Assembly (NCBI GenBank): GCA_039654915.1 | Contig: CM077596.1 | Location: 49,536,501 to 49,600,500 of the forward strand | Source: Aquilaria yunnanensis | Taxonomy: Eukaryota > Streptophyta > Magnoliopsida > Malvales > Thymelaeaceae | Direction of reading: 5' to 3' | DNA: 64,000 nt | Shown here: positions 33,848-61,640 of the stretch, piece after piece | How the letters are laid out: each line of letters opens with the position of its first letter | Numbering within the stretch: position 1 is the stretch's first letter | Position numbers and translations under genes: made by a program | The notes under the pieces: model-generated | Databases searched by the model: none | What the model was told of the DNA's origin: nothing | Seen by the model: only the letters and a program-made list of their open reading frames with translations

Positions 33848-33852
33848 TCTGT

Positions 33853-35405
33853 TGTGGCAACGTCGGGTTTTCTGGAGTCGCCACCAATCGGTTTTTATCT
33901 AGGTCGATTGGACACCTTAAAATTGGTCTGCGAGAGTTCGGGGATCGGGAGTACGGTTACGCTAAAACAACTTTGTTATAGCGCCCAAAATTGGCACATT
34001 AGTTGATTTTAATTTTGTTTTGCTTTTGCTTTTAAATAAATTCAGTTAATTTTCAAAACCGAAAATTTTAACTGAATTATTTAGTCGGATGTGGATTTTT
34101 GGTAATTAATTTGGATAAAATTTGATACTTCCGAACCATGGACTCTGCCGAGTCACCTGGACACGGAATTTGATGAAATTTTAAATAACTTAATCCATAT
34201 CGTAAATATGGATTTTTATCTTTGTGTTTATTTCTATTCAATTAAAAAAAAGTTGATATTTTCTAAACCGTAGATCCTGCCGGATCATCCGGATATGGAA
34301 ATTAATAAAATTTAATTTAATTATTAAATTTTTGTAGCATCAATATTTTAAAGTCTACGGTTAACTAAAATAATTTGATCCATAATTTCTAAAATTTAGA
34401 GCAATTCTTTAGATAAAATTTTTTTATTGATATTAAAAAAAAATTAGAGTTTAATAAGAGATGAAAAATTTTAATAAATTATTATTTTTTTATAACGAAG
34501 AAAATATGTATAAGTTCAAAGCACATATAATTTTTTTAATAATATAACGTAAAGAAAAATCCAACTCAAAATTAAAATAAAATAAAAAATTTTATTACTT
34601 ATAATAAGAAATTATTTTAATGCTAGATTTATATAATTAAATTCCTGCAATAACATATGGTTCACGTAAAGGTAGAGTGAGCAAAACAAACAAATAAGAA
34701 AATAAAATAAAATAAAATAAAATAAATAATATATTAATAGACCAGATATAGTGCAGCAAGATAATTAGTTACCAAAATTGGTTAATCACAATTTGTCCCA
34801 TAATAATTAGATAAAATTACATTTTTACCCTCATATTTCAGAAATATAAACTTTACCGCTTTGCTTTTTAAGACAACTGATAGTAACTTTTTTATAATTT
34901 TAATTTTAATGTTACGGTAGCTATATTTTTTAATTTCAATCAATTTTTAGTTAAGGGACTTTTCAAATTATTAATTTTTTAATATGAAAACTACAGTATT
35001 ATTGTTTATGTCAATTAACCAAAAATACCACAAAGATTGAAATTAACTGAAAATAGATAATACAATCTAAATTAAAATTTTAGAGGTTGTTATCAAAATG
35101 TATTAAAAAGATTTAGTGGCAAACTATATATTTTTAAAATAAGAGGGGCGAAAATGTAATTTTACATAAAACCTTAAGAATAAATTGTAATTACTGCAAT
35201 AAAATATGTACAAGAACGAGTCTTTTAAAAAAAAAACTTATATAGATATTTACAATTATAGCCTTATCAATATTTAGTTACTAAAAATCACATATGAAAA
35301 GATTTCACCACGCAGTTCTTTTGATGTATAAGTATATTGCAATGTACGTATGTAGATGGTCCATATTAGTATACAAGTATGTACGTTTCACAACAATATA
35401 AATAT

Positions 35406-35436
<31 letters not shown>

Positions 35437-36625
35437 TTTTGATATTCTGAATCATCCAAGTTTATAAAGAGAGATATTTTTTTTTTTATATCAATGCTGA
35501 TAGCATTCCGGTCAGGCATTAAAACCATATAAAAATAATTCTGATTATTAGAGGGTCGAAACAAACCAAGGATAAACAAAGAAAGGACAAACAATAAATA
35601 TAAACAAAAAAAACTTGCTGTCCATGCTTAATCTGCAAAGAAAACAACGTTAGTGACTTGGATGGATAAAATAAGGAAGATCAAGGACTAAACGAGGGTT
35701 TTACCCAAAAAAAATTTTGACTTTTTCAACGTCTGTTATCTTCTTTGTTTTTTTGTTTCTTTCGTTTTTGTTTCTGACGACAGGGGCGACGTAGCGAGGC
35801 GGAGGTAGGCGACGGTGCGCGCGAGGAGGGGCAGCAGGGAGGCGACGTGACGGCAGGGGGCACGACGCGGAGAGCAGAGGGCGCGACGAGGTGACTGAGA
35901 GCAGGGGGAGGGGACCTAGGCGCGGAGGAGCCCGAAACGCGGGCGCGGCACGGCGGAACACGAAGCGAAGAGCAGAGGGCGCGACTGCAGCTGACGGGAG
36001 CACGGCGGCAGGCGAGCAGCAGGGGAGATCGTAGGTGAGCGACGGGAGCAGAGGCGAACGGAGGAGCTGAGAGGCGGTGGTGGCGTCGGCTGGAGTGGAG
36101 GCACGCGGAAGCGTCGGGCAGCAGGGGAGAAGGCTGGAAGTTGGACGGTGGCGGTGCAGCGAGAAGGGACGCGATGGGGAGGTTGAGCGGAGAGAGAGAG
36201 AGAAGCTGGAGAGTGTGTGTGTGTAGGATGAGCTGAGAGAGAGCCGGAATTCTGGAGAAATGAGAGAGCAGAGAAGAGTTTTTTTTAGTGGGAGAGTGAG
36301 GTCGGGAGGGAGAAAGAGAGCTCCCGTGAGAGAGGAGTTGGTGGAGGGAGAAGAGAGAGAGATGGACGGCTCTCCCCTCTCGCTGGAGCCCTCTAGGGGC
36401 TTCTCTTTTAACTAGAAAAAGAAGAAGGGAGAAGCCTCCCGAAACCTCTCGAGAGCCACTTTTTTTTTTTAATAAAAATTAACTAATAATATTTTAATTT
36501 TTAGTTTTTAATTAATTTAATCAATTTTTTTTATACACACATATTTAGAATAAAAATACCCCCTAAAATAATATATGTATATTTTTTTTAATGTCTAAAA
36601 GGTCGGACGAAATTGGGTGTTAACA
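33853..36625 (-). repeat. 3' LTR of element G
   Basis: On the plus strand it starts 'tgtggcaacgtcgggtttt' and ends 'gggtgttaaca'; in element sense it begins TGTTAACACCC. It includes long AT-rich stretches, (AAAAT)n near 34700-34730, (TTTA)n near 35400-35440, and a sharply GC-rich block at 35775-36420. Open frames in the GC block are identical in both LTRs simply because the LTRs are; I do not call them genes. Confidence 0.93.
35775..36420 (-). promoter_or_regulatory. GC-rich, CpG-dense block in 3' LTR of G
   Basis: An abrupt switch from AT-rich DNA to sequence dominated by G and C on the plus strand, with many CpGs, (GA)n tracts near 36190-36360 and 'gtgtgtgtgt' near 36216. It lies in the first third of the LTR in element sense. 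A position before or around the transcription start or in the 5' leader is plausible, but no TATA or splice signal settles it. Copy: 47910-48545. Confidence 0.45.
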
Positions 36626-36638
36626 GCTGCCTCCATTT
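36626..36638 (-). other. Polypurine tract of element G
   Basis: On the minus strand 'aaatggaggcagc' abuts the 3' LTR start TGTTAACA. It is short for a polypurine tract but in the right place, and it agrees with the orientation given by the primer site. Confidence 0.6.
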
Positions 36639-36734
36639 GCATGCTTCATGGGACATGATGTATGCAAAGTCGTTTACCAAATTTCGTCCGGCTTAGCTAG
36701 GCATTGAAAACTTTCTCGCCGCCTAAATCCTAAG

Positions 36735-39010
36735 GTTAAGGAACTTTCTTAGAACCTCTGCGATAGGAACTCTCCTATCGTTAAATAAAAATTGATTGAT
36801 TGATCGAGGTTAAGGGCCCTACCTTAGAACCTCTACGATAGGAACCTTCCTACCGTCGAAAAAATATTGATTTGGTTGGTTTTAAGGTTTAAGGAAAGAT
36901 CCTTAGAACCTCTACGATAGGAAAGCTCCTATCGTTGTAAGATGGACTGATTGATTGATTGTTTGAGGTTAAGGAAAGGTCCTTAGAACCTCTACGATAG
37001 AAAAGCTCCTATCGTTGTAAGATGGACTGATTGATTGATTGTTTGAGGTTAAGGAAAGGTCCTTAGAACCTCTACGATAGGAAAGCTCCTATCGCTGTAA
37101 GATGGACTGATTGATTGATTGTTTGAGGTTTAAGGAAAGGTCCTTAGAACATCTACGATAGGAAAGCTCCTATCGTTGTAAGATGGACTGATTGATTGAT
37201 TGTTTGAGGTTAAGGAAAGGTCCTTAGAACCTCTACGATAGAAAAGCTCCTATCGTTGTAAGATGGACTGATTGATTGTTTGAGGTTAAGGAAAGGTCCT
37301 TAGAACCTCTACGATAGGAAAGCTCCTATCGTTGTAAGATGGACTGATTGATTGATTGTTTGAGGTTAAGGAAAGGTCCTTAGAACCTCTACGATAGGAA
37401 AGCTCCTATCGTTGTAAGATGGACTGATTGATTGTTTGAGGTTAAGGAAAGGTCCTTAAAACCTCTACGATAGGAAAGCTCCTATCGTTGTAAGATGGAC
37501 TGATTGATTGATTGTTTGAGGTTAAGGAAAGGTCCTTAGAACCTCTACAATAGAAAAGCTCCTATCGTTGTAAGATGGACTGATTGATTGTTTGAGGTTA
37601 AGGAAAGGTCCTTAGAACCTCTACGATAGGAAAGCTCCTATTGTTGTAAGATGGACTGATTGATTGATTGATTGTTTGAGGTTAAGGAAAGGTCCTTAGA
37701 ACCTTTACGATAGAAAAGCTCCTATCGTTGTAAGATGGACTGATTGATTGATTGTTTGAGGTTTAAGGAAAGGTCCTTAAAACCTCTACGATAGGAAAGC
37801 TCCTATCGTTGTAAGATGGACTGATTGATTGATTGTTTGAGGTTAAGGAAAGGTCCTTAGAACCTCTACGATAGGAAAGCTCCTATCATTGTAAGATGGA
37901 CTGATTGATTGATTGTTTGAAGTTTAAGGAACTCTCCTTAGAACCTCGACGATAGGAACTCTCCTATCGTTGAAAGTTTGAGGTTAAGGGCCCTACCTTA
38001 GAACCTCTGCGATAAGAACTCTCTTATCGTTTAAGAAAAATTGATGATTGATTGTTTGAGGTTTAAGGAACTCTCCTTAGAACCTCGACGATAGGAACTC
38101 TTCTATCGTTGAAAGTTTGAGGTTAAGGGCCCTACCTTAGAACCTCTGCGATAAGAACTCTCTTATCGTTTAAGAAAAATTGATGATTGATTGTTTGAGG
38201 TTTAAGGAACTCTTCTTAGAACCTCGACGATAGGAACTCTTCTATCGTTGAAAGTTTGAGGTTAAGGGCCCTACCTTAGAACCTCTGCGATAAGAACTCT
38301 CTTATCGTTTAAAGAAAAATTGATGATTGATTGTTTGAGGTTTAAGGAACTCTCCTTAGAACCTCGATGATAGGAACTCTCCTATCATTGAAAGTTTGAG
38401 GTTAAGGACCCTACCTTAGAACCTCTGCGATAAGAACTCTTTTATCGTTTAAAGAAAAATTGATGATTGATTGTTTGAGGTTTAAGGAACTCTCCTTAGA
38501 ACCTCGACGATAGGAACTCTCCTATCATTGAAAGTTTGAGGTTAAGGGCCCTACCTTAGAACCTCTGCGATAAGAACTCTCTTATCGTTTAAGAAAAATT
38601 AATGATTGATTGTTTGAGGTTTAAGGAACTCTCCTTAGAACCTCGACGATAGGAACTCTTCTATCGTTGAAAGTTTGAGGTTAAGGGCCCTACCTTAGAA
38701 CCTCTGCGATAAGAACTCTCTTATCGTTTAAGAAAAATTGATGATTGATTGTTTGAGGTTTAAGGAACTCTCCTTAGAACCTCGACGATAGGAACTCTCC
38801 TATCGTTGAAAGTTTGAGGTTAAGAGCCTTACCTTAGAACCTCTACGATAGGAAAGCTCCTATCGTTGTAAGATTTGATTAGATGAGGTTAAGGAACTCT
38901 CCTTGAACCTCAACGATAGGAACTTTCCTATCGTTGAAAATTTGATTGAATGAGGTTAAGGAACTCTCCTTGAACCTCGACGATAGGAACTTTCCTATCG
39001 TTAAAAGTAA
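36735..39010 (-). repeat. Tandem hairpin array, about 32 units
   Basis: About 32 related units cover 2.3 kb just before the 3' end of G. From 36885 to 37920 there are 13 units with a period near 80 bp. From 37921 to 38825 there are seven copies of a two-unit repeat with a period near 140 bp. Irregular single units lie at both edges. Each unit holds two inverted repeats: GAGGTT-AAGGA-loop-TCCTT-AG-AACCTC, and ACGATAGGA-loop-TCCTATCGT with a 4-nt loop. Units are separated by (TTGA)n-like spacers. Being palindromic, the stems form on either strand's transcript. Function unknown; by position it would be a 3' untranslated region of the element RNA. Confidence 0.92.
37921..38825 (-). repeat. Higher-order part of the hairpin array (140-bp period)
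   Basis: Seven copies starting near 37921, 38061, 38201, 38341, 38481, 38620 and 38760. Each pairs a unit with stem GATAGGA/TCCTATC and a unit with stem GATAAGA/TCTTATC. The difference between the two is a compensated base pair (G-C to A-T). In the copy at 38341 the stem reads TGATAGGA/TCCTATCA, again changed on both arms. Confidence 0.88.
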
Positions 39011-39378: not shown

Positions 39379-39927
39379 CTATGAATCGGCGATTTGCATC
39401 CCATCCAGTTTTCTCACAAACTGGCAAACTGGGTTGTTTAAAGTCAGATTCCCAAGACTATAACGATCTCGTTCTTTTTGGAGAATTATCCATAATCCAA
39501 CAATCTCAAATTGCACTATTCTGCAAGAATGCGCTTCAAGAACCTCTCGAATATCTTCTAGAGATTCCTTACGCAAGCCATTCTTAATGAATCTTATTCT
39601 ATCATTACGATTTCTGGTGATCACTCCTGGAGAACGACATTTATTGCCGCAAATCCACCATCCACAATTATGACAAACGCCTAGCCTCTTTGCTCTTCTT
39701 TTTTTGGCATAAGCGCTTTTACCAAAGCCGGGCATACGGGGAAAGAACGCTTTTGGAACTTCACCAGCTGAACGAACCTTAGCTTCGATTAGCCACCGCA
39801 CATTATCAGGAATGCCTTTGTGCATAAATACTCTGAATCGTTCACATCTAGCTTGATAAATCTTTTTAAGAACATTTATTGGGAAGGAAGGAAAATACTT
39901 TCGTAGGGCGGAAAGAGAAGACTCCAT
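39379..39927 (-). CDS. Cysteine-rich basic protein, copy 3 (intact, 182 aa)
   Basis: An intact frame, best candidate for an expressed cargo protein of G. Residues 6-35 form a probable helix ('ALRKYFPSFPINVLKKIY'). 'KGIPDNVRWLIEAKVRSAGE' and 'PRMPGFGKSAYA' follow. Then comes a dense basic patch 'KKRRAKRLG' (75-83) next to a putative zinc site C85-x2-C88-x4-C93-x3-C97. The tail has 'RIRFIKNGLRKESLEDIREV' and 'NNPVCQFVRKLDG'. No signal peptide or membrane segment. The basic patch joined to a Cys cluster recalls the cysteine-rich nucleic-acid-binding (often silencing-suppressor) proteins of carlaviruses and relatives. That is from memory of the family, and Cys spacing here is shorter. Nucleic-acid binding is inferred. 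Start chosen because all three copies share it. A TATA box lies 66 bp upstream. Confidence 0.75.
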   Translation of the reverse strand: MESSLSALRKYFPSFPINVLKKIYQARCERFRVFMHKGIPDNVRWLIEAKVRSAGEVPKAFFPRMPGFGKSAYAKKRRAKRLGVCHNCGWWICGNKCRSPGVITRNRNDRIRFIKNGLRKESLEDIREVLEAHSCRIVQFEIVGLWIILQKERDRYSLGNLTLNNPVCQFVRKLDGMQIADS

Positions 39928-39992
39928 TGATGAAGGAGGTATTTAAGAGAAGAAATAAATTAGTGATTGTAGGAAATGGAAATAACTAACAC

Positions 39993-40001
39993 ATATTTAT
40001 A
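39993..40001 (-). promoter_or_regulatory. TATA box of cysteine-rich gene copy 3
   Basis: The minus strand reads 'tcactataaatatgtg', a consensus TATAAATA 66 bp before the ATG at 39927. Copy 2 has the same 'catcactataaat' context. This suggests each gene has its own polymerase II promoter. Confidence 0.65.
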
Positions 40002-40151
40002 GTGATGAAAGGGATAATGCGTTAATTACACTTGCAGAAGCAAGTACATTATTATCAAAAGAAAAGACAAATGACAGCTTATATGTACAGCAATCATGAC
40101 TGTGGCTCTCATCTTCCACTGATTTATGTCCAGTAATGGCTCCAATGCCTT

Positions 40152-40700
40152 CTATAAGTCGGAGATTTGCTTCCCATCCAGTTTTCTTACAAACTGACAA
40201 ACAGGGTCGTTTAAAGTCACATTCCCAAGACTGTAACGGTTTCGTTCTTTATGGTAAGTCCTCCATAAACCGATAATTTCACCTTGCACTTTTCCACAAG
40301 AATGCGTTTCAAGAGTCTCTCGGATATCTTCCAGAGATTCCTTACGCAGGCCATTCTTAATGAATTTTCTTTTATCTTCACGATTTATGGAGATGTATCC
40401 TAAAGAGCCACATTTAGTATTACAATTCCATCGCCCACATTTATAACACACGCCTAGTCTCTTTGCTCTTCGCCTTTTGGCATAACGGCTTTTACCTAAA
40501 CCGGGCATGCGGGGCATAAATGCATCTGGAACTTCACCCGCCAAACGGACCTTAGCTTCAATTATCCACTGCACATTATCGGGAATGCCTTTGCGTGTAA
40601 AAACTCTGATTCTTTCACATCTAGCAAGGTAGATCTTTTTAAGGACTTTTATTGGAAGGGAAGGAAAGTATTTTCGCAGTGCAGAAAGAGTAGAATCCAT
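40152..40700 (-). CDS. Cysteine-rich basic protein, copy 2 (intact, 182 aa)
   Basis: Same length and architecture as copy 3 and clearly a tandem duplicate 773 bp away. It has an N-terminal helix region ('ALRKYFPSLPIKVLKKIY'), 'RMPGLGKSRYAKRRRAKRLG' as the basic patch, and C85-x2-C88-x4-C93-x3-C97. The C-terminal 'KFIKNGLRKESLEDIRETL' and 'NDPVCQFVRKLDG' also match. Substitutions between copies leave the Cys cluster, basic patch and C-terminal motif untouched, which hints at selection on the protein. Its TATA box is at 40821-40827. Same family remarks as copy 3: the resemblance to viral cysteine-rich nucleic-acid-binding proteins is by architecture only. An unrelated plant or Tat-element accessory protein is the alternative. 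Confidence 0.77.
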   Translation of the reverse strand: MDSTLSALRKYFPSLPIKVLKKIYLARCERIRVFTRKGIPDNVQWIIEAKVRLAGEVPDAFMPRMPGLGKSRYAKRRRAKRLGVCYKCGRWNCNTKCGSLGYISINREDKRKFIKNGLRKESLEDIRETLETHSCGKVQGEIIGLWRTYHKERNRYSLGNVTLNDPVCQFVRKLDGKQISDL

Positions 40701-40820
40701 TGATGAGAGAAGAATTTGAGAGGAGAGGGAAATGAATCAGTTATTGTAGGAGACTGGAATAACCGACTTTAGAAGTCACGGGGTATCTTATCCGCTGCTT
40801 AATCAGAAGGAAGAACACGC

Positions 40821-40827
40821 ATTTATA
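40821..40827 (-). promoter_or_regulatory. TATA box of cysteine-rich gene copy 2
   Basis: The minus strand reads 'catcactataaatgcgtg' with TATAAAT 121 bp before the ATG at 40700. The extra distance relative to copy 3 is a short leader segment ('gcagcggataagatacc') that copy 3 lacks. Confidence 0.65.
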
Positions 40828-40989
40828 GTGATGAAAAGGGATAACGTGTCGATTACACTTAGGGGAGCATGTACATCTGTCAAAAGAAAATGCAAACTTT
40901 TCCAAATATAACAAACTGTATGTACAGTAATTGTGACTGTGGCTCATATCTTCCACTGGCTTTACGTCTAGTAACGGCATTAACGGCTT

Positions 40990-41538
40990 TTATGAGTCGA
41001 GGGTTTGCTTCCCATCCAGCTTTCTTACAAGCTGGCAAACAGGGTCATTTAAAGTCAGATTCCCGGGACTGTAACGCTCTCGTTCTTCATGAAAAATACT
41101 CCATAAACCAAGAAGTTCGCGTTGCACTGATCCACAAGAATGCGTCTCAAGAGTCAATCGGATATCATCCAACGAATCCTTACTCAGGCCATTCTTAATG
41201 AATCGTATTTTATCTTCTCGATTATCAGAGATTATCCCTAAATAACGACATTTAGTATTACAAGTCCACCGTCTACATTTATGGCAGACTTGTAACCTTT
41301 TCACTTTTCACTTTTTGGCATAAGAGCTTTTGCCTATACCAGGCATGTGAGACACAAATGCCTCTGGGATTTCACCTGCCAGACGAATCTTGGCTTCGAT
41401 TAACCACCGCACATCTTCAGGGATTCCTTTGTGCATCAGAACTCTTAATCATTCACAGCGAACTTGGTAGATCTTTTTGAGAATGTTCATTGGGAGAGAA
41501 GGAAAATATTTTCGTAAGACAGAAAGAGTAGGATCCAT
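40990..41538 (-). pseudogene. Cysteine-rich basic protein, copy 1 (inactivated)
   Basis: A third copy of the same length (549 bp, ATG at 41538, shared stop position). It carries two in-frame TGA codons, one after 'KKIYQVRCE' and one inside the basic patch, at sites that are arginine in the other copies. C-to-T change of CGA is the simplest cause. The downstream part (41304-40990) stays open and keeps the C-x2-C-x4-C-x3-C cluster 'CHKCRRWTCNTKC'. The upstream region where copies 2 and 3 have TATAAAT reads 'catcaaaatgaag', so the promoter also looks lost. It is first in element sense. Confidence 0.8.
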
Positions 41539-41689
41539 TTTCTAGAGGGAAGTAAAAGAAAGAAGAGAGGAAAGAATCAGTTATTATGGGCAACTGAGAG
41601 AACCGACTTGAGAGTCACGAAGTACCGTATTCGCCGCTTAACCGGAAAAGTGGATCCTACTTCATTTTGATGTGATAGATATTTTTTAT

Positions 41690-42060
41690 ATTCCATCGAG
41701 CTGACGTCGATCCAATCCTCGATTATTGAATCCATTGTCCGCTTTTGACAAATTTTCAACGACAATATTTCTTGATGTCTGCCTTATCTTTTACTATCTC
41801 TTATCTTGGATGCTGCTAAGCTGGCATCAATCCTGTCCTTCCAGGTATAGCCTCGATTATTGAATCAATTGCCAGGCTTTTAACAATATTATCTACTTTA
41901 TATTTTTTGATATCTGCCTTATCATTGGCTATAGCTATCTCTTATCTTGGATACTACTAAGCTGGCATCAATCCTGTCTTTCCAGGTGTAGCCTCGATTA
42001 TTGAATCAATTGCCAGGCTTTTGACAATATTGTCTACTTTATCCTTGGATCCCTGATGGG
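41690..42060 (-). repeat. Tandem repeat, about 141-bp period
   Basis: 'ctaagctggcatcaatcctg' recurs at 41816 and 41957, with the following 'cctcgattattgaatcaatt' and 'gccaggctttt'. A third, diverged copy starts near 41690. Non-coding, upstream of the cysteine-rich genes in element sense. Confidence 0.85.
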
Positions 42061-44640: not shown

Positions 44641-45970
44641 TGTCCATCTAACAAAGACTACACCCTAGATTCTGGACTAAATCTAGGAGATTTTTACTAT
44701 TAGATTACTTTTGCAAGCTTTCAAAGATACAAGTTTATTCAAATGATTCCCTGTCATTCAAAAGTGTGTGCGGACTATTAGGTCAGATCTGGCTTGGAGC
44801 CCTTCCAAAATTAATGTAATTCCAGCTCAAAATCTTCACTTTCAATTACCAATCACATCGGGCCTATCAACTTGGACTCGACCAACTGTTGGACCTTGAG
44901 TTTCAATATGACAGAATTTTCAGTTACATTTGGGATTTGGGTCACACCAACTTGGAAGAGAAGGTCACTTGGTCTTTGCTACTATTGATATAGATGATAG
45001 CAGAATGCCTTCTTCAGCAAAGACTGTGATTAACTTTTCTTCAAAAATGAATTTCATTTTTTGGTGTAATGAGGAGGGAATTGCTCCGGCCATATTTTCT
45101 ATCTTGGACTCTATATCTATGAGACGTCCTTCGGTTTGTTCTGCCATTAGTCTTGTTTGGAGCCGAGTTGGATATCGGTGTTGAGGTCCAATTTTACCCT
45201 TTTTAAAGTAAGATTCTTTTTATTAACTTCTATGTGTATGTGATTGATGCAATGGATGCATGCATGCAATGAATGAGTTTGATTATCCACTATCGTGGAA
45301 CTTCAAGACTTCTAGTTATTATTATAAAGACCAAAAAGTTAGCATAATTTGATGCGTGGTTTTGATGCATGAAGAATAATTGCACAAGAAAGATAAGGTT
45401 ATTAATAAGTTAAATAGCAATTAACAACTCATGAAGTATTATGGATAAACAAGTTAAAACCATACGAAGAAAAGTGTAGAGTAACAACACAGCATAACAA
45501 GGATATGCTTATGGCGTTGGTAAAATGGTAGAAATTCTATGGTCAGTTCTATGGTTAAGTGGGGAGTTCTATATGCATAAGGTGGCTTATCAAAAAGGCA
45601 AGGGATAGTTCCCGAATCCCGTCACTAAATTATAGTGACAGCCCGATTCCTTACCCTCTAGGGTTTATGTAAGGAATGGATTAATTCAAGTCGTAGCTTT
45701 TCGTGGGCCCACGCAGAGACTAACCGTCTCAGAAGGCAATACACTACTTTGCTACTTTGAAACCGGTGAAGGCTTGGAGACCATGGCCTCTCAAGGACAA
45801 CAACACTAATTCCGCTTAGAAAAAACGTGTTCGATTTGAGGAAGCTCGGGTATAGAGCTTCATTTTGTAAATGCATTATGCATGTTTAGAATAAGTAAAT
45901 ATAACATATAAATCCACATAAAAATAAACAAAACAGAACAAAATAAATCAATTTTTAGGCTTGACTCACT
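44641..45970 (-). other. 5' leader region of element G
   Basis: First 1.3 kb after the primer site in element sense. A minus-strand frame at 45147-44965 (60 codons) reads 'MAEQTEGRLIDIESKIENMA', coiled-coil-like. It could be a relic of a gag start, but it is too short to claim. 45600-45880 holds another short frame with no recognisable domain. Confidence 0.4.
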
Positions 45971-46009
45971 AACCAGAGATTCTGGGTTCGATCCCTAGTG
46001 GAGTCGCCA
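45971..46009 (-). other. Primer-binding site of G: 39-nt tRNA-Arg-like match
   Basis: The plus strand reads like the 3' half of a tRNA. It has 'aaccagagat', then T-arm CTGGG-TTCGATC-CCTAG, a seven-base acceptor strand TGGAGTC, G as discriminator and CCA at 46007-46009, three bases from the LTR. The minus strand therefore starts TGGCGACTCCAC, a primer site for that tRNA. From memory this 3' half matches a plant arginine tRNA, and Tat/Ogre gypsy elements use arginine tRNA. The match is far longer than the usual 12-18 nt. Confidence 0.82.
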
Positions 46010-46012
46010 AGC

Positions 46013-48758
46013 TGTGGCAACGTCGGGTTTTCTGGAGTCGCCACCAATCGGTTTTTATCTAGGTCGATTGGACACCTTAAAATTGGTCTGCGAGAGTTCG
46101 GGGATCGGGAATACGGTTACGCTAAAACAACTTTGTTATAGCGCCCAAAATTGGCACCTTAGTTGATTTTAATTTTATTTTGCTTTTGCTTTTAAATAAA
46201 TTCAGTTAATTTTCAAAACCGAAAATTTTAACTGAATTATTTAGTCGGATGTGGATTTTTGGTAATTAATTTGGATAAAATTTGATACTTCCGAACCATG
46301 GACTCTGCCGAGTCACCCGGACACGGAATTTGATGAAATTTTAAATAACTTAATCCATATTGTAAATATGGATTTTTATCTTTGTGTTTATTTATATTCA
46401 ATTAAAAAAAAGTTGATATTTTCCAAACCGTAGATCCTGCCGGATCATCCGGATATGGAAATTAATAAATTTTAATTTAATTATTAAATTTTTGTAGCAT
46501 CAATATTTTAAAGTCTACGGTTAACTAAAATAATTTGATCCATAATTTCTAAAATTTAGAGCAATTCTTTAGATAAAATTTTTTTATTGATATTAAAAAA
46601 AATTAGAGTTTAATAAGAGATGAAAAATTTTAATAAATTATTATTTTTTTATAACGAAGAAAATATGTATAAGTTCAAAGCACATATAATTTTTTTAATA
46701 ATATAACGTAAAGAAAAATCCAACTCAAAATTAAAATAAAATAAAAAATTTTATTACTTATAATAAAAAATTATTTTAATGCTAGATTTATATAATTAAA
46801 TTCCTGCAATAACATATGGTTCACGTAAAGGTAGAGTGAGCAAAACAAACAAATAAGAAAATAAAATAAAATATATATATATTAATAGACCAGACATAGT
46901 GCAGCAAGATAATTAGTTACCAAAATTGGTTAATCACAATTTGTCCCATAATAATTAGATAAAATTACATTTTTACCCTCATATTTCAGAAATATAAACT
47001 TTACCGCTTTGCTTTTTAAGACAACTGATAGTAACTTTTTCAAAATTTTAATTTTAATGTTACGGTAGCTATATTTTTTAATTTCAATCAATTTTTAGTT
47101 AAGGGACATTTCAAATTATTAATTTTTTAATATGAAAACTACAGTATTATTGTTTATGTCAATTAACCAAAAATACCACAAAGATTGAAATTAACTGAAA
47201 ATAGATAATACAATCTAAATTAAAATTTTAGAGGTTGTTATCAAAATGTATTAAAAAGATTTAGTGGCAAACTATATATTTTTAAAATAAGAGGGGCGAA
47301 AATGTAATTTTACATAAAACCTTAAGAATAAATTGTAATTACTGCAATAAAATATGTACAAGAACGAGTCTTTTTAAAAAAAAAACTTATATAGATATTT
47401 ACAATTATAGCCTTATCAATATTTAGTTACTAAAAATCACATATGAAAAGATTTCACCACGCAGTTCTTTTGATGTATAAGTATATTGCAATGTACGTAT
47501 GTAGATGGTCCATATTAGTATACAAGTATGTATGTTTCACAACAATATAAATATTTATTTATTTATTTATTTTGATATTCTAAATCATCCAAGTTTATAA
47601 AGAGAGATATTTTTTTATTTATATCAATGCTGATAGCATTCCGGTCAGGCATTAAAACCATATAAAAATAATTCCGATTATTAGAGGGTCGAAACAAACC
47701 AAGGATAAACAAAGAAAGGACAAACAATAAATATAAACAAAAAAAACTTGCTGTCCATGCTTAATCTGCAAAGAAAACAACGTTAGTGACTTGGATGGAT
47801 AAAATAATGAAGATCAAGGACTAAACGAGGGTTTTACCCAAAAAAAATTTTGACTTTTTCAACGTCTGTTATCTTCTTTGTTTTTTTGTTTCTTTCGTTT
47901 TTGTTTCTGACGACAGGGGCGACGTAGCGAGGCGGAGGTAGGCGACGGTGCGCGCGAGGAGGGGCAGCAGGGAGGCGACGTGACGGCAGGGGGCACGACG
48001 CGGAGAGCAGAGGGCGCGACGAGGTGACTGAGAGCAGGGGGAGGGGACCTAGGCGCGGAGGAGCCCGAAACGCTGGCGCGGCACGGCGGAACACGAAGCG
48101 AAGAGCAGAGGGCGCGACTGGAGCTGACGGGAGCACGGCGGCAGGCGAGCATCAGGGGAGATCGGAGGTGAGCGACGGGAGCATTGGCGAACGGAGGAGC
48201 TGAGAGGCGGTGGTGGCGTCGGCTGGAGTGGAGGCACGCGGAAGCGTCGGGCAGCAGGGGAGAAGGCTGGAAGTTGGACGGTGGCGGTGCAGCGAGAAGG
48301 GACGCGATGGGGAGGTTGAGCGGAGAGAGAGAGAGAAGCTGGAGAGTGTGTGTGTGTAGGATGAGCTGAGAGAGAGCCGGAATTCTGGAGAAAGGAGAGA
48401 GCAGAGAAGAGTTTTTTTTAGTGGGAGAGTGAGGTCGGGAAGGAGAAAGAGAGCTCCCGTGAGAGAGGAGTTGGTGGAGGGAGAAGAGAGAGAGATGGAC
48501 GGCTCTCCCCTCTCGCTGGAGCCCTCCAGGGCTTCTCTTTTAACTAGAAAAAGAAGAAGGGAGAAGCCTCCGAAGCCTCTCGAGAGCCATTTTTTTTTTT
48601 TTTTAATAAAAATTAACTAATAATATTTTAAGTTTTAGTTTTTAATTAATTTAATCAATTTTTTTTATACACACATATTTAGAATAAAAATACCCCTAAA
48701 ATAATATATGTATATTTTTTTTAATGTCTAAAAGGTTGGACGAAATTGGGTGTTAACG
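46013..48758 (-). repeat. 5' LTR of element G
   Basis: Pairs with 33853-36625 along its full length. Differences are scattered substitutions, shorter (AAAAT)n and (TTTA)n tracts, and a terminal G for A at 48758. The repeat of the GC-rich block is at 47910-48545. Followed by TCTGT at 48759-48763. Confidence 0.93.
47910..48545 (-). promoter_or_regulatory. GC-rich, CpG-dense block in 5' LTR of G
   Basis: Copy of 35775-36420 with a handful of substitutions. As this is the 5' LTR, it is the copy that could take part in driving the element. Proline/arginine-rich minus-strand frames (48136-47834, 48152-47859) are most likely composition artefacts. Confidence 0.45.
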
Positions 48759-48763
48759 TCTGT

Positions 48764-58883: not shown

Positions 58884-59850
58884 ATGTCTTCCTCATCTGA
58901 TCAAAATCCAACCTTTCCTCTCAACACCCAACCTCCTTTCGCAACTGATAAACCACTTATTGCTCTCAACATCACTGCCCAACTCAATGAAAAGTTAACT
59001 CCCTCCACCTTTCCTTAATGGCGTGCTCAATTCGAAGCCCTCCTTATTGGTTACGATTTACTTGACTATGTCGAAGGCACCCTTCGGTGTCCCTCTTCCG
59101 CTGGTACCACTGCTGATGAGCTGCACAAGACCCATTGGGTCCGACAGGATAAACTAATCCTGAGTGCTATTTTGGCTTCTACATCCTCTTCAATCACCCC
59201 CTTATTGCTATGGCAAAGACCTCCCATGAAGCTTGGAAAAAGCTTAAAAATTTATATGCTAGTTGATCTCAAACTCATGCTATGCAGTTAAAAGAAGAAC
59301 TCACACTAATTCAGTGTGGAAATCGGTCAATCACCGACTATCTCCACTCTGTGAAGGCCTTGGCTAATGAAATAGCCATCATTGATCATTCCATTTCGGA
59401 TGATGACCTAACTCTTTATGTGTTGAATGGTTTAGGTCCAGATTTTCGAGAGATAGCAGCGCCTATTCGAGCCCGAGAATCTTCACTGGCCTTTGAGGAG
59501 TTACACGACCTTCTGGTCGGACATGAAGCCAATCTATGGCGCATGGAAGCTGCAACGCAGCAACTAGTTTCTTCTGCAAATTTCACGAAGACAAAGCAGT
59601 CTACGCAAGGGGAAAATCAATCTTGGTCCTTCAGGAAAAATGATACTGCCCATGGAACTCAAGGCTTCAGCCCAGGCCGAAATACTCATGGAGCCCAACG
59701 TGATGGGCGTTGCTCCAACAACAATTATGGAAAGCCCAACAATTCCAATCGGCGTTATCAACCCAAATGCCAACTTTGTGATCAGCTGGGACATATTGCA
59801 AAGTCCTGTCCGAAATTTAACCCCCAGAATGTTTCTATCAATTGTGCCGC
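58884..59850 (+). pseudogene. gag: gag of copia E
   Basis: Begins at ATG 58884 ('MSSSSDQNPTF'), with 'LNITAQLNEKLTPSTFP' and a stop at 59016, where tryptophan is usual. 'WRAQFEALLIGYDLLDYVEG' follows. After a frameshift near 59200 the long frame from 59282 carries 'GNRSITDYLHSVKALANEIA' and 'LNGLGPDFREIAAPIRARES'. The nucleocapsid knuckle 'CQLCDQLGHIAKSC' (C-x2-C-x4-H-x4-C, near 59768-59810) is intact. Capsid and nucleocapsid packaging of element RNA is the family role. Confidence 0.9.
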
Positions 59851-60439
59851 CTCTTCTAATGGAAAGGACAAAAATTGGCTACTTGATTCGGCCGCTTCTC
59901 ATAATATCACGGGTGATCTTTCCAATCTATCTATTCATTCTGAATATGATGGAACTGACGAAGTAATTCTCAGTGATGGTTCAGGTTTGGCAGTCTCACA
60001 CATTGGTTCTTTGTCTTTGCACTCCCCTCACTGCACTTTTACATTGCGCGATAACCTTTGTGTTCCAAGCCTTTGCAAAAATTTAATTTTCGTTCATCAT
60101 CTCACCAGACAAAACAATGCCATTGTTGAATTTCGCCATTTCTATTTTCTTGTGAAGGACAAGATCACGGGGGCGATTCTACTAAAAGGAGCATGTGACA
60201 ATGGCATCTATACCTTTCCGGAATCAATGGTAACATCCAAAAAGGTTGCTAATGTGCATGAACGGACTTCTATTGATGGTTGGCATAAGCATCTTGGGCA
60301 TCCTTCTCTTAAAATTGTTCATCGTCTTGTCAAGAATTTTTCTCTTCCTATTTCATCCAACAAAAATTTGTCTTCACTATGTCATTCATGCTCTATTAAT
60401 AAAGCTCATCAACAACCCTTTCGTGTCAATAGTCTCTAA
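59851..60439 (+). pseudogene. pol: Protease and pre-integrase domain of copia E
   Basis: Same open frame as gag. 'NWLLDSAASHNITGDLSNL' holds the protease motif as D-S-A-A, common in this lineage. 'LCVPSLCKNLIFVHHLTRQN' follows, then 'WHKHLGHPSLKIVHRLVKNF' and 'LCHSCSINKAHQQPF' with the H/C zinc ligands. The frame ends at TAA 60437, at the integrase boundary. Confidence 0.9.
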
Positions 60440-61640
60440 AGTCATGAGCCCTTTGAACTTATTTACACAGATGTGTGGGGTCCTGTTAGTTATATCGGCT
60501 TTGATGGATCACGATATTACCTTATTTTTGTTGATCATTATACAAAATATATATGGTTTTATCCAATGATCACTAAATCCGGTGTTTCTCATATTTTTCC
60601 ACATTTCAAAAAGTTTGTTGAAACTCGCTTTCAAAAATCAATAAAAACACTATATTCAGACAATGGTGGTGAGTTTATTGCTTTGAAATCATATCTCTCA
60701 CTTCATGGAATAACTCACTACACCACTGCTCCCCACACCCCGCAACAAAATGGTGTCTCTGAACGTCGTCACTGTCACCTCGTTGAAACGGGCCTTATGC
60801 TTCTTCATGATGCAAATCTGAATTTCTCTTATTGGCCTCATGCCTTTCAAACAGCCTCTTACCTCATAAATAGACAGCCCATGCCCATTCTTCACGAAAA
60901 ATCACCATTTGAAGTTCTTTTTGGTCAAAAACCAAATTATTTAAAATTAAAAAAAATTTGGTTACCTTTGTTATCCCCTCACCCGGCCCTATAACTCAAA
61001 TAAAATGCAGCCCAAATCGAAAGCCTGTATATTTCTCAGTTATTCACCAACTCAAAACGCGTATAAGTGCTTTGAACCACAAACCAAAAAACTCTTCTTT
61101 TCACGACATGTGTTGTTTGATGAGACCAAACACCAATCCAGCCATTTTCAACCTGTCCCTTCCGTCTCACCCGAAAACACCCCAAACCCTCAGAAATTTA
61201 TTCCTCTTCTTTTTGGTGCCCAGTAACCTGCAGTTCTTTCCTGCGCATCAGCACCATCACACCTTCCGGAAGGTCCTCTTGCCATTGTCACGTCCTTCCC
61301 AGGTAATTTCGGACCCCCTATTTCTTTACTTCATGATTCTTTTCATGCTCTAGATCACACCATCTCTAATCCGAATCCTCCTTTAGATGAAAATAGGACT
61401 GTTTCTTCATTAAATCTCTCATCATCTCTTCCTATTTTCTCTACGGATACCCATCTAGGTACTGATTATAATACCTCAAATTTGAATTTCACAAACCCTT
61501 CCCCAACAAATAATCCCCCTCAACGCACTCACAACATGACCACACGATCAATGAATCAAAATTTTAAACCCAAACAGATCCATACTGTGTCCAAATATCC
61601 TCTCCCCCCCGACCATAAAACCAACGAGTGTGAGCCAAGC
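60440..61640 (+). pseudogene. pol: Integrase of copia E
   Basis: The frame 60473-60994 carries 'MWGPVSYIGFDGSRYYLIFV', 'DHYTKYIWFYPM', the second catalytic site 'TLYSDNGGEFIAL' and 'HTPQQNGVSERRHCHLVETG' with the catalytic glutamate, then 'YWPHAFQTASYLINRQPMP'. A shift near 60950 is followed by 61005-61226 ('ACIFLSYSPTQNAYKCFEPQ'). The linker to RT is out of frame. Confidence 0.9.

What the first reader, a model, noticed from the sequence alone, without database searches (positions are those of the whole stretch)
39379..41538. Retroelement carrying a triplicated cysteine-rich basic protein gene that resembles plant-virus nucleic-acid-binding proteins
Seen: three tandem 549-bp genes in element sense, two fully open. 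All have a basic patch joined to C-x2-C-x4-C-x3-C and a conserved C-terminal motif. There is no gag or pol in the element. Known: carlaviruses and relatives encode small cysteine-rich nucleic-acid-binding proteins, several acting as silencing suppressors, with a basic patch next to a Cys cluster. Inferred: G may have captured such a gene, or evolved a similar one, perhaps to blunt host silencing of its own transcripts. The Cys spacing differs, so the link is tentative.
Basis: partly seen in the sequence, partly recalled or inferred. Interest (0 to 1): 0.9.

Follow-up and report, generated by a model that had tools for sequence, protein, structure and literature searches.

The report
Retrotransposon carrying virus-like zinc-finger genes
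A plant jumping gene that has lost its own copying machinery carries three copies (two of them open) of a small zinc-finger gene that resembles a gene used by plant RNA viruses against host defences, and relatives of this gene occur in many flowering plants.

Summary
Window 39379-41538 holds three tandem 549-bp genes in element sense, two open and one with two stops, inside a 14.9-kb LTR element without detectable gag or pol. Both open products exceed Pfam's curated cut-offs for Viral_NABP and Carla_C4.

The element probably did not capture the gene itself. In this genome the gene is the regular third gene, sense and just behind integrase, of an Athila-type Ty3/gypsy lineage: 28 of 30 loci of one integrase class carry it within 1,020 nt, 0 of 7 loci of other classes do. 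Homologues come from Populus, Acer, Xanthoceras, Rhamnella, Parasponia, Orobanche and Striga. A LONELY GUY-type (cytokinin-activating) gene follows it in at least 17 of the 30 loci. The window element is a young derivative with the gene triplicated; paralogues show purifying selection (dN/dS 0.19-0.34).

The viral resemblance is specific but hangs on a core of about 33 residues; flanks add 12-18 bits once anchored. Homology is likely, not proven; anti-silencing function is untested. Ten literature searches found no report of this gene in retrotransposons.

The parts
33848..33852 (.). Target-site duplication TCTGT, left
33853..36625 (-). 3' LTR in element sense (about 2.77 kb)
   Evidence: 97.55% identical to the other LTR; ends
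36626..36640 (-). Purine-rich tract (PPT-like) next to the 3' LTR
   Evidence: GCAAATGGAGGCAGC in element sense
36733..39006 (.). Tandem-repeat arrays, units of about 80, 139 and 67 nt, between the last gene and the 3' LTR
39379..39927 (-). Copy 3 of the NABP-like gene, open, 182 aa
   Evidence: Viral_NABP 2e-6, Carla_C4 2.7e-4, above curated cut-offs
39990..40014 (-). Upstream block of copy 3 with a TATA-like motif (shared with copy 2)
40152..40700 (-). Copy 2 of the NABP-like gene, open, 182 aa
   Evidence: Viral_NABP 4.3e-7, Carla_C4 4.3e-5, above curated cut-offs
40816..40840 (-). Upstream block of copy 2 with a TATA-like motif
40990..41538 (-). Copy 1 of the NABP-like gene, two in-frame stops in this insertion; open copies exist elsewhere in the genome
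   Evidence: open copy-1 genes in 30 of 38 loci
41539..41649 (-). Leader of copy 1, homologous to the integrase-to-NABP spacer of relatives with pol
41717..41791 (-). Short pol remnant: matches the stretch between RNase H and integrase of L072, and 7 of the 30 integrase loci
   Evidence: 74.7% over 75 nt to L072
45970..46009 (-). Primer-binding site, tRNA-Arg type (tRNA identity and extent recalled), about 40 nt
46013..48758 (-). 5' LTR in element sense
48759..48763 (.). Target-site duplication TCTGT, right

Best explanation
SHOWN: in this genome a Ty3/gypsy lineage (Athila-type, see membership test) carries, in sense just behind integrase, a gene for a 182-aa basic zinc-finger-type protein that matches the flexivirus cysteine-rich (NABP) profile families; in many copies a LONELY GUY-type gene follows. 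The window element is a young non-autonomous relative: gag and pol are gone, the NABP-like gene is triplicated, and the paralogues diverged under purifying selection. INFERRED, likely: the core is homologous to viral NABPs (direction of transfer open), and the arrangement holds in other eudicots. INFERRED, less sure: the protein is a nuclear nucleic-acid-binding regulator that helps the element escape silencing, and the derivative is copied in trans by an unidentified partner while supplying extra doses of this protein from cistrons that may have their own TATA-like promoters.
For: Pfam matches above cut-off; 36 of 36 members of A1 match both families at E<=1. The core alone scores Carla_C4 5.8e-5 and 1.6e-5, while 0 of 10 scrambles with fixed Cys match. 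Adding the flanks raises Viral_NABP from 18.3 to 30.1 bits (P0002) and from 16.2 to 33.8 bits (P0009), colinearly. The best 12 of 40 Foldseek hits among viral proteins are 11 named as plant-virus silencing suppressors, NABPs or a 15-kDa protein, plus 1 unnamed. Gene order: 28 of 30 integrase-class loci against 0 of 7 controls; gag, RT, RNase H and integrase core found in L072. Selection: dN/dS 0.23-0.33 (c1-c2, 23 loci), 0.27-0.34 (c2-c3, 5 loci), 0.19-0.24 (c1-c3, 4 loci). Abundance: 8,775 first-look candidates, 150 scored. LONELY GUY-type gene: PF03641 9.7e-25, behind the gene in 17 of 30 integrase loci, with the PGGxGTxxE-type motif in L075 and L018. Two mandarivirus CRPs raise virus accumulation, and one of them suppresses local silencing (PMC12172455: passages and one section).
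Against: With residues 67-99 masked in two members, no Pfam match remains at E<=10, so the link hangs on one short basic/Cys core. Cys spacing differs from the viral one (recalled). No Foldseek hit reaches E<=0.001 in BFVD or PDB; the model is middling (pLDDT 68, pTM 0.47) and Foldseek also uses sequence. No viral NABP sequence could be fetched for a profile-profile test or a tree. No expression data. No gene copy beside integrase was fully open under my filter. No partner with matching LTRs was found. The integrase query came from a gene model fused to the NABP-like protein, so that class was picked for the association, though in another species. The control set is small (7).
Confidence: 0.6

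Rival explanations
1. The protein is a retroelement- or host-born zinc-finger protein; the viral resemblance is convergence on a basic patch joined to a Cys cluster.
For: All detectable similarity depends on a core of about 33 residues; Cys spacing differs; fold matches have E-values above 0.001. Weak matches to other families also occur, e.g. Prok-RING_2 at 0.0085 for one core.
Against: The core alone passes the Carla_C4 cut-off; scrambles with the same Cys do not (0 of 10). In the same proteins the flanks add 11.8 and 17.6 bits to Viral_NABP, colinearly over about residues 34-121. Viral CRPs head both fold lists, including Sweet potato chlorotic fleck virus NABP at 12% identity and target TM-score 0.46.
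Confidence: 0.3
2. The protein is a nucleocapsid-like RNA chaperone or packaging factor: it binds the element's RNA and helps it into another element's particles, which explains why a derivative without gag keeps it.
For: Basic zinc-finger-type protein, kept and triplicated in an element without gag; selection in a non-autonomous element suggests benefit in cis.
Against: The relative in L072 has a gag-side zinc knuckle of its own (zf-CCHC_2, 1.3e-5, slightly below cut-off), so a second nucleocapsid is not obviously needed; no CCHC family matched the window proteins.
Confidence: 0.25
3. The transfer ran the other way: flexivirus CRPs descend from this retroelement gene.
For: Relatives come from at least seven eudicot genera (four orders, recalled), so the plant gene is old or often moved.
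Against: No tree with viral sequences could be built; the viral CRP family is itself broad.
Confidence: 0.15
4. The ORFs are passengers without function that hitchhike on a successful non-autonomous element.
For: No copy beside integrase was fully open under my filter; the window's copy 1 is broken.
Against: dN/dS 0.19-0.34 between paralogues, including copy 3, which was not used to choose loci; 144 of the 150 scored genome matches have no inner stop (the best of 8,775 candidates, so biased).
Confidence: 0.07

Closest known systems
Flexivirus cysteine-rich / nucleic-acid-binding proteins (Pfam PF01623 Carla_C4, PF05515 Viral_NABP)
   Same: Basic NLS-like patch directly before C-x2-C; colinear Viral_NABP match over about 85 residues; viral CRPs head the fold hit lists
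   Different: Cys spacing (C-x2-C-x4-C-x3-C here; longer middle loop in carlaviruses, recalled); conserved C-terminal part without a match; encoded by a nuclear retroelement
Athila lineage of Ty3/gypsy LTR retrotransposons with extra 3' ORFs, including LONELY GUY-like ones (Steinbauerova 2011, not seen itself; abstract recalled, cited in PMC9289625 section 12)
   Same: gag-pol without an additional RNase H between RH and IN in L072; sense ORF behind pol; LONELY GUY-like gene
   Different: The NABP-like gene is not described in what I read; the Neumann 2019 survey counted extra ORFs of at least 250 codons (PMC6317226, passages), and these have 182
Retand lineage elements with TRP28 antisense ORFs and tandem arrays before the 3' LTR (PMC11963269, parts 1 and 2 of 5 plus term search)
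   Same: Long pol-3'LTR region, extra ORF, tandem arrays, non-autonomous forms
   Different: TRP28 ORFs are antisense to gag-pol; here the ORF is sense and of another family
Insect retrotransposons with RNA-virus-type SF1 helicase and weak silencing suppression (PMC6338049, passages)
   Same: Retroelement carrying an RNA-virus-type accessory domain proposed to block silencing
   Different: Other domain, other host
VANC anti-silencing proteins of Arabidopsis VANDAL elements (PMC5735166 and PMC10398659, starts of abstracts in a search listing)
   Same: Transposon-encoded protein that counters host silencing
   Different: Different elements and protein (no comparison made); here function untested

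Membership tests
Flexivirus CRP / NABP family (PF05515, PF01623) | Profile match above curated cut-off | tested here: met
   Both open window products, P0002 and P0009; P0066 and P0094 fall below
Flexivirus CRP / NABP family (PF05515, PF01623) | Basic (NLS-like) patch next to a Cys cluster | tested here: met
   [KR]{3}A[KR] in 75 of 83 and C-x2-C-x4-C-x3-C in 71 of 83 rows of A2
Flexivirus CRP / NABP family (PF05515, PF01623) | Viral zinc-finger spacing | tested here: inconclusive
   Observed C-x2-C-x4-C-x3-C differs from the recalled carlavirus spacing; no viral sequences were at hand
Flexivirus CRP / NABP family (PF05515, PF01623) | Similarity beyond the core | tested here: inconclusive
   Masked core gives no match; flanks add 11.8 and 17.6 bits once anchored; fold hits weak but headed by viral CRPs
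Flexivirus CRP / NABP family (PF05515, PF01623) | Nucleic-acid binding and silencing suppression | not testable with these tools
   needs bench assays
LTR retrotransposon | Two LTRs, target duplication, PBS, PPT | tested here: met
Autonomous Ty3/gypsy element | gag and pol | tested here: not met
   not found in the window element
Athila lineage (for the relatives with gag-pol) | OTA-type pol without additional RNase H (aRH marks Tat; PMC6317226 passages) | tested here: inconclusive
   L072: gag, RT, RH, rve; 609 nt between the RH and integrase frames, translated, show RH tail, linker and integrase start but no second RNase H recognised by eye; one locus; Athila-type integrase and gag motifs recalled; no RT tree
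LONELY GUY (PF03641) | Lysine_decarbox profile and PGGxGTxxE motif | tested here: met
   9.7e-25 for L074; exact motif in L075 and L018, first residue changed in L049/L074; not found in the window. Motif recalled

The most novel reading that the evidence does not exclude
A lineage of plant LTR retrotransposons carries a two-gene host-manipulation cassette: a flexivirus-type cysteine-rich protein that blunts RNA silencing or acts as a transcription regulator, and a cytokinin-activating LONELY GUY enzyme that favours dividing cells. Its non-autonomous offspring dropped gag and pol but multiplied the first gene, so that it spreads by supplying this protein and borrowing the copying machinery.
Probability: 0.25. 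Interest if true: 0.93.

Novelty: new variant of a known kind. Interest (0 to 1): 0.82.

Why it matters
Plant retrotransposons are targets of RNA silencing, and whether LTR elements encode suppressors of the viral kind is open. Here is a conserved gene under selection, with a profile match to viral suppressors, with thousands of candidate copies in one genome and relatives in at least seven eudicot genera, so that the question becomes directly testable. It may be a gene shared between plant RNA viruses and retroelements, whose direction of transfer a tree could settle. The pairing with a cytokinin-activating enzyme suggests that such elements may manipulate host cells as viruses do. That a non-autonomous element lost gag-pol but triplicated this gene points to a benefit to the element itself.
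Full report
WHAT IS THERE. The region 39379-41538 holds three tandem copies of a 549-bp gene on the minus strand. Copies 2 (40152-40700) and 3 (39379-39927) are open, 182 aa each. Copy 1 (40990-41538) has two in-frame stops. They sit in an LTR element: LTRs 33853-36625 and 46013-48758, 97.55% identical, flanked by TCTGT on both sides, with a primer site ending at 46009 and a purine tract at 36626-36640 that fix the orientation as minus. The LTRs differ by 35 substitutions in 2,744 sites (K2P 0.013), about 0.5-1.0 million years at 1.3e-8 to 6.5e-9 per site and year (rates recalled). Between the last gene and the 3' LTR lie tandem arrays with units of about 80 and 139 nt. No gag or pol was found: Pfam on 6 of the 9 internal minus-strand frames, and gag, protease-region, RT, RNase H and integrase pieces of L072 as probes, the best hit inside the element being E 0.60.

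THE PROTEIN. Pfam gives Viral_NABP (2e-6, 4.3e-7) and Carla_C4 (2.7e-4, 4.3e-5) for the two open products, above the curated cut-offs. A protein search found 136 relatives at E<=10 (120 listed, best 2.5e-87), with named sources Xanthoceras, Acer, Rhamnella and Orobanche; a second one with an 86-aa profile found 752 (120 listed), adding Populus, Striga and Parasponia. All 36 members of A1 (2 from the window) match both Pfam families at E<=1, not all above cut-off. In the 83 rows of A2, 71 keep C-x2-C-x4-C-x3-C and 75 the basic run.

HOW FIRM IS THE VIRAL LINK. When residues 67-99 are masked in P0002 and P0009, no Pfam family matches at E<=10; the 35-residue cores alone give Carla_C4 at 5.8e-5 and 1.6e-5. 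Ten scrambles of one core with the Cys kept in place gave 0 matches to either family. So the match is specific in order, not only in composition, but short. Anchored on the core, the flanks add 11.8 bits (P0002, 18.3 to 30.1) and 17.6 bits (P0009, 16.2 to 33.8) to Viral_NABP, colinearly over about residues 34-121. The AlphaFold model from 36 sequences was poor (pLDDT 63, pTM 0.31), and that from 83 sequences middling (68.3, 0.47). Against predicted viral proteins neither gave a hit at E<=0.001, but of the 40 hits of the second the best 12 are 11 named as plant-virus silencing suppressors, NABPs or a 15-kDa protein, and 1 unnamed, which has the highest target TM-score (0.51; the best named one has 0.46). 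The first list is headed in the same way. These searches use sequence as well as shape, so they are not independent of the core. PDB gave nothing. I judge homology likely (about 0.65), convergence possible (0.3).

WHERE THE GENE COMES FROM. One annotated Rhamnella protein (P0079) joins an integrase end to the NABP-like protein. With this integrase part I searched the window's own genome (842 Mb). Of the 30 best loci, 29 carry the NABP-like gene on the same strand, 28 of them 308-355 nt behind the end of the matched integrase part, one (L039) partial at 1,208 nt; L050 showed none in its flank. Cut to 1,020 nt behind integrase, 28 of 30 have it; of 7 loci from other integrase classes (L069, L076-L081) 0 have it, the best chance hit being E 0.061. 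The query came from a gene model chosen because it carries both parts, so the class was picked for the association, but in another species; the control set is small. L072 shows gag, a zinc knuckle slightly below cut-off, RT, RNase H and integrase core in order; the 609 nt between the RNase H and integrase frames, read, show no second RNase H by eye, so I call the lineage Athila-type (also from motifs that I recall). Relatives align to the copy-1 unit of the window (41649 to 40807; 74-84% in 28 of the 30 loci and L070), and L072 and 7 of the 30 loci also to 41717-41791, a piece between RNase H and integrase. The simplest reading is internal deletion of gag-pol followed by triplication. In a tree of 36 rows the three copies of this genome fall into one clade (100/95) that also holds P0001 (with copy 3) and P0002 (with copy 1), whose sources are unnamed. 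The LTRs of the relative on C6 do not resemble the window's, so the mobilising partner is unknown and a chimeric origin is possible.

A SECOND CARGO GENE. About 420 nt behind the NABP-like gene, L074 holds a LONELY GUY-type ORF (PF03641, 9.7e-25). It is found in 17 of 30 integrase loci within their short flanks, and in L003, L005, L006, L018 and weakly L002 among the 38 loci fetched with NABP queries. L075, downstream of the three NABP-like copies of L003, has a 194-aa ORF with PGGFGTLGE, then tandem arrays (63-72% to the window's) and a stretch 78% like the start of the window's LTRs. P0090 from Rhamnella joins both genes (its NABP part carries the precomputed Carla_C4 label but does not reach E 0.001). 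The gene was not found in the window.

SELECTION AND NUMBER. The genome search scored 150 of 8,775 first-look candidates, all 97-100% identical, 149 spanning 1-182 and one 1-181, 6 with an inner stop. A second query scored 150 of 7,817 and brought in copy-1 genes, many open. Within loci, dN/dS is 0.23-0.33 for copies 1-2 (23 loci), 0.27-0.34 for copies 2-3 (5 loci, one of them the window's) and 0.19-0.24 for copies 1-3 (4 loci). Of 38 loci, only open frames of exactly 182 codons at least 85% like a window copy were used; six odd-length ORFs were dropped. Loci were chosen by protein similarity, which biases comparisons within a class, but copy 3 was not used for choosing. No copy beside integrase was fully open under my filter: among the loci seen, the derivative holds the open genes.

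HOW IT MAY WORK. Two mandarivirus CRPs with an NLS and a zinc finger raise virus accumulation, and one suppresses local silencing (PMC12172455: passages, one section). [quoted passage not shown] By analogy I propose a nuclear nucleic-acid-binding protein that protects the element from silencing or raises its transcription. Copies 2 and 3 share an upstream block with a TATA-like motif, which would allow separate expression; this is inference. A nucleocapsid-like role is the main functional rival.

WHAT IS KNOWN. LONELY GUY-type domains in Citrus and Populus gypsy elements are known (PMC9289625 section 12, citing Steinbauerova 2011). That screen of 121 genomes names no NABP or carlavirus domain in its main text; its supplementary chart was not seen. 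Retand elements have other, antisense extra ORFs (PMC11963269: two parts of five, abstract included, and a term search). A review of additional ORFs (PMC7264820, part 1 of 3 and a term search) does not hold the terms carla, Cys or cytokinin. Neumann 2019 counted extra ORFs of at least 250 codons (PMC6317226, passages), above the 182 here. RNA-virus-type helicases in insect retrotransposons with weak suppressor activity are the nearest parallel (PMC6338049, passages). Endogenous betaflexivirus replicase sequence is known in cucumber (PMC3136472, passages). A 2026 review of gene capture by plant transposons (PMC13317346, term search only) does not hold the terms Athila, carla or cytokinin. My ten searches found no report of an NABP-like gene in LTR retrotransposons; I saw their listings, and most subscription journals are not held.

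VERDICT. Observation confirmed; interpretation partly supported. New variant of a known kind: a retrotransposon lineage with a virus-type accessory gene, here in a triplicated non-autonomous form.

Noticed in passing
L074 4019-4396 (-); L075 from 78; P0090: LONELY GUY-type (cytokinin-activating) gene behind the NABP-like gene in many relatives; such domains are known from Citrus and Populus gypsy elements, but here paired with the NABP-like gene.
   Followed up: partly
window 36733-39006: Two-zone tandem array (about 80-nt and 139-nt units built of related sub-units) before the 3' LTR, matched at 63-72% in the sibling element of L075.
   Followed up: partly
window 45970-46009: The tRNA-like stretch at the primer site (Arg type, recalled) seems to run to about 40 nt, well past the usual 18, as if primer tRNA sequence had been copied into the element.
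   Followed up: no
window 41717-42042: A 141-nt direct repeat (2.4 copies) that begins at the pol remnant.
   Followed up: no
window 8500-32200 and 59280-61000: Long ORFs of the Copia type (gag, integrase, RT motifs recognised by eye) outside the element.
   Followed up: no
G000, e.g. C1:28821958, C3:1201375, C8:12755232: Another integrase class: 14 of the 150 matches listed have open frames of 1,809 aa without a stop, a possibly young element; no NABP-like gene within about 1,020 nt behind integrase in the 3 such loci fetched (L076-L078).
   Followed up: partly
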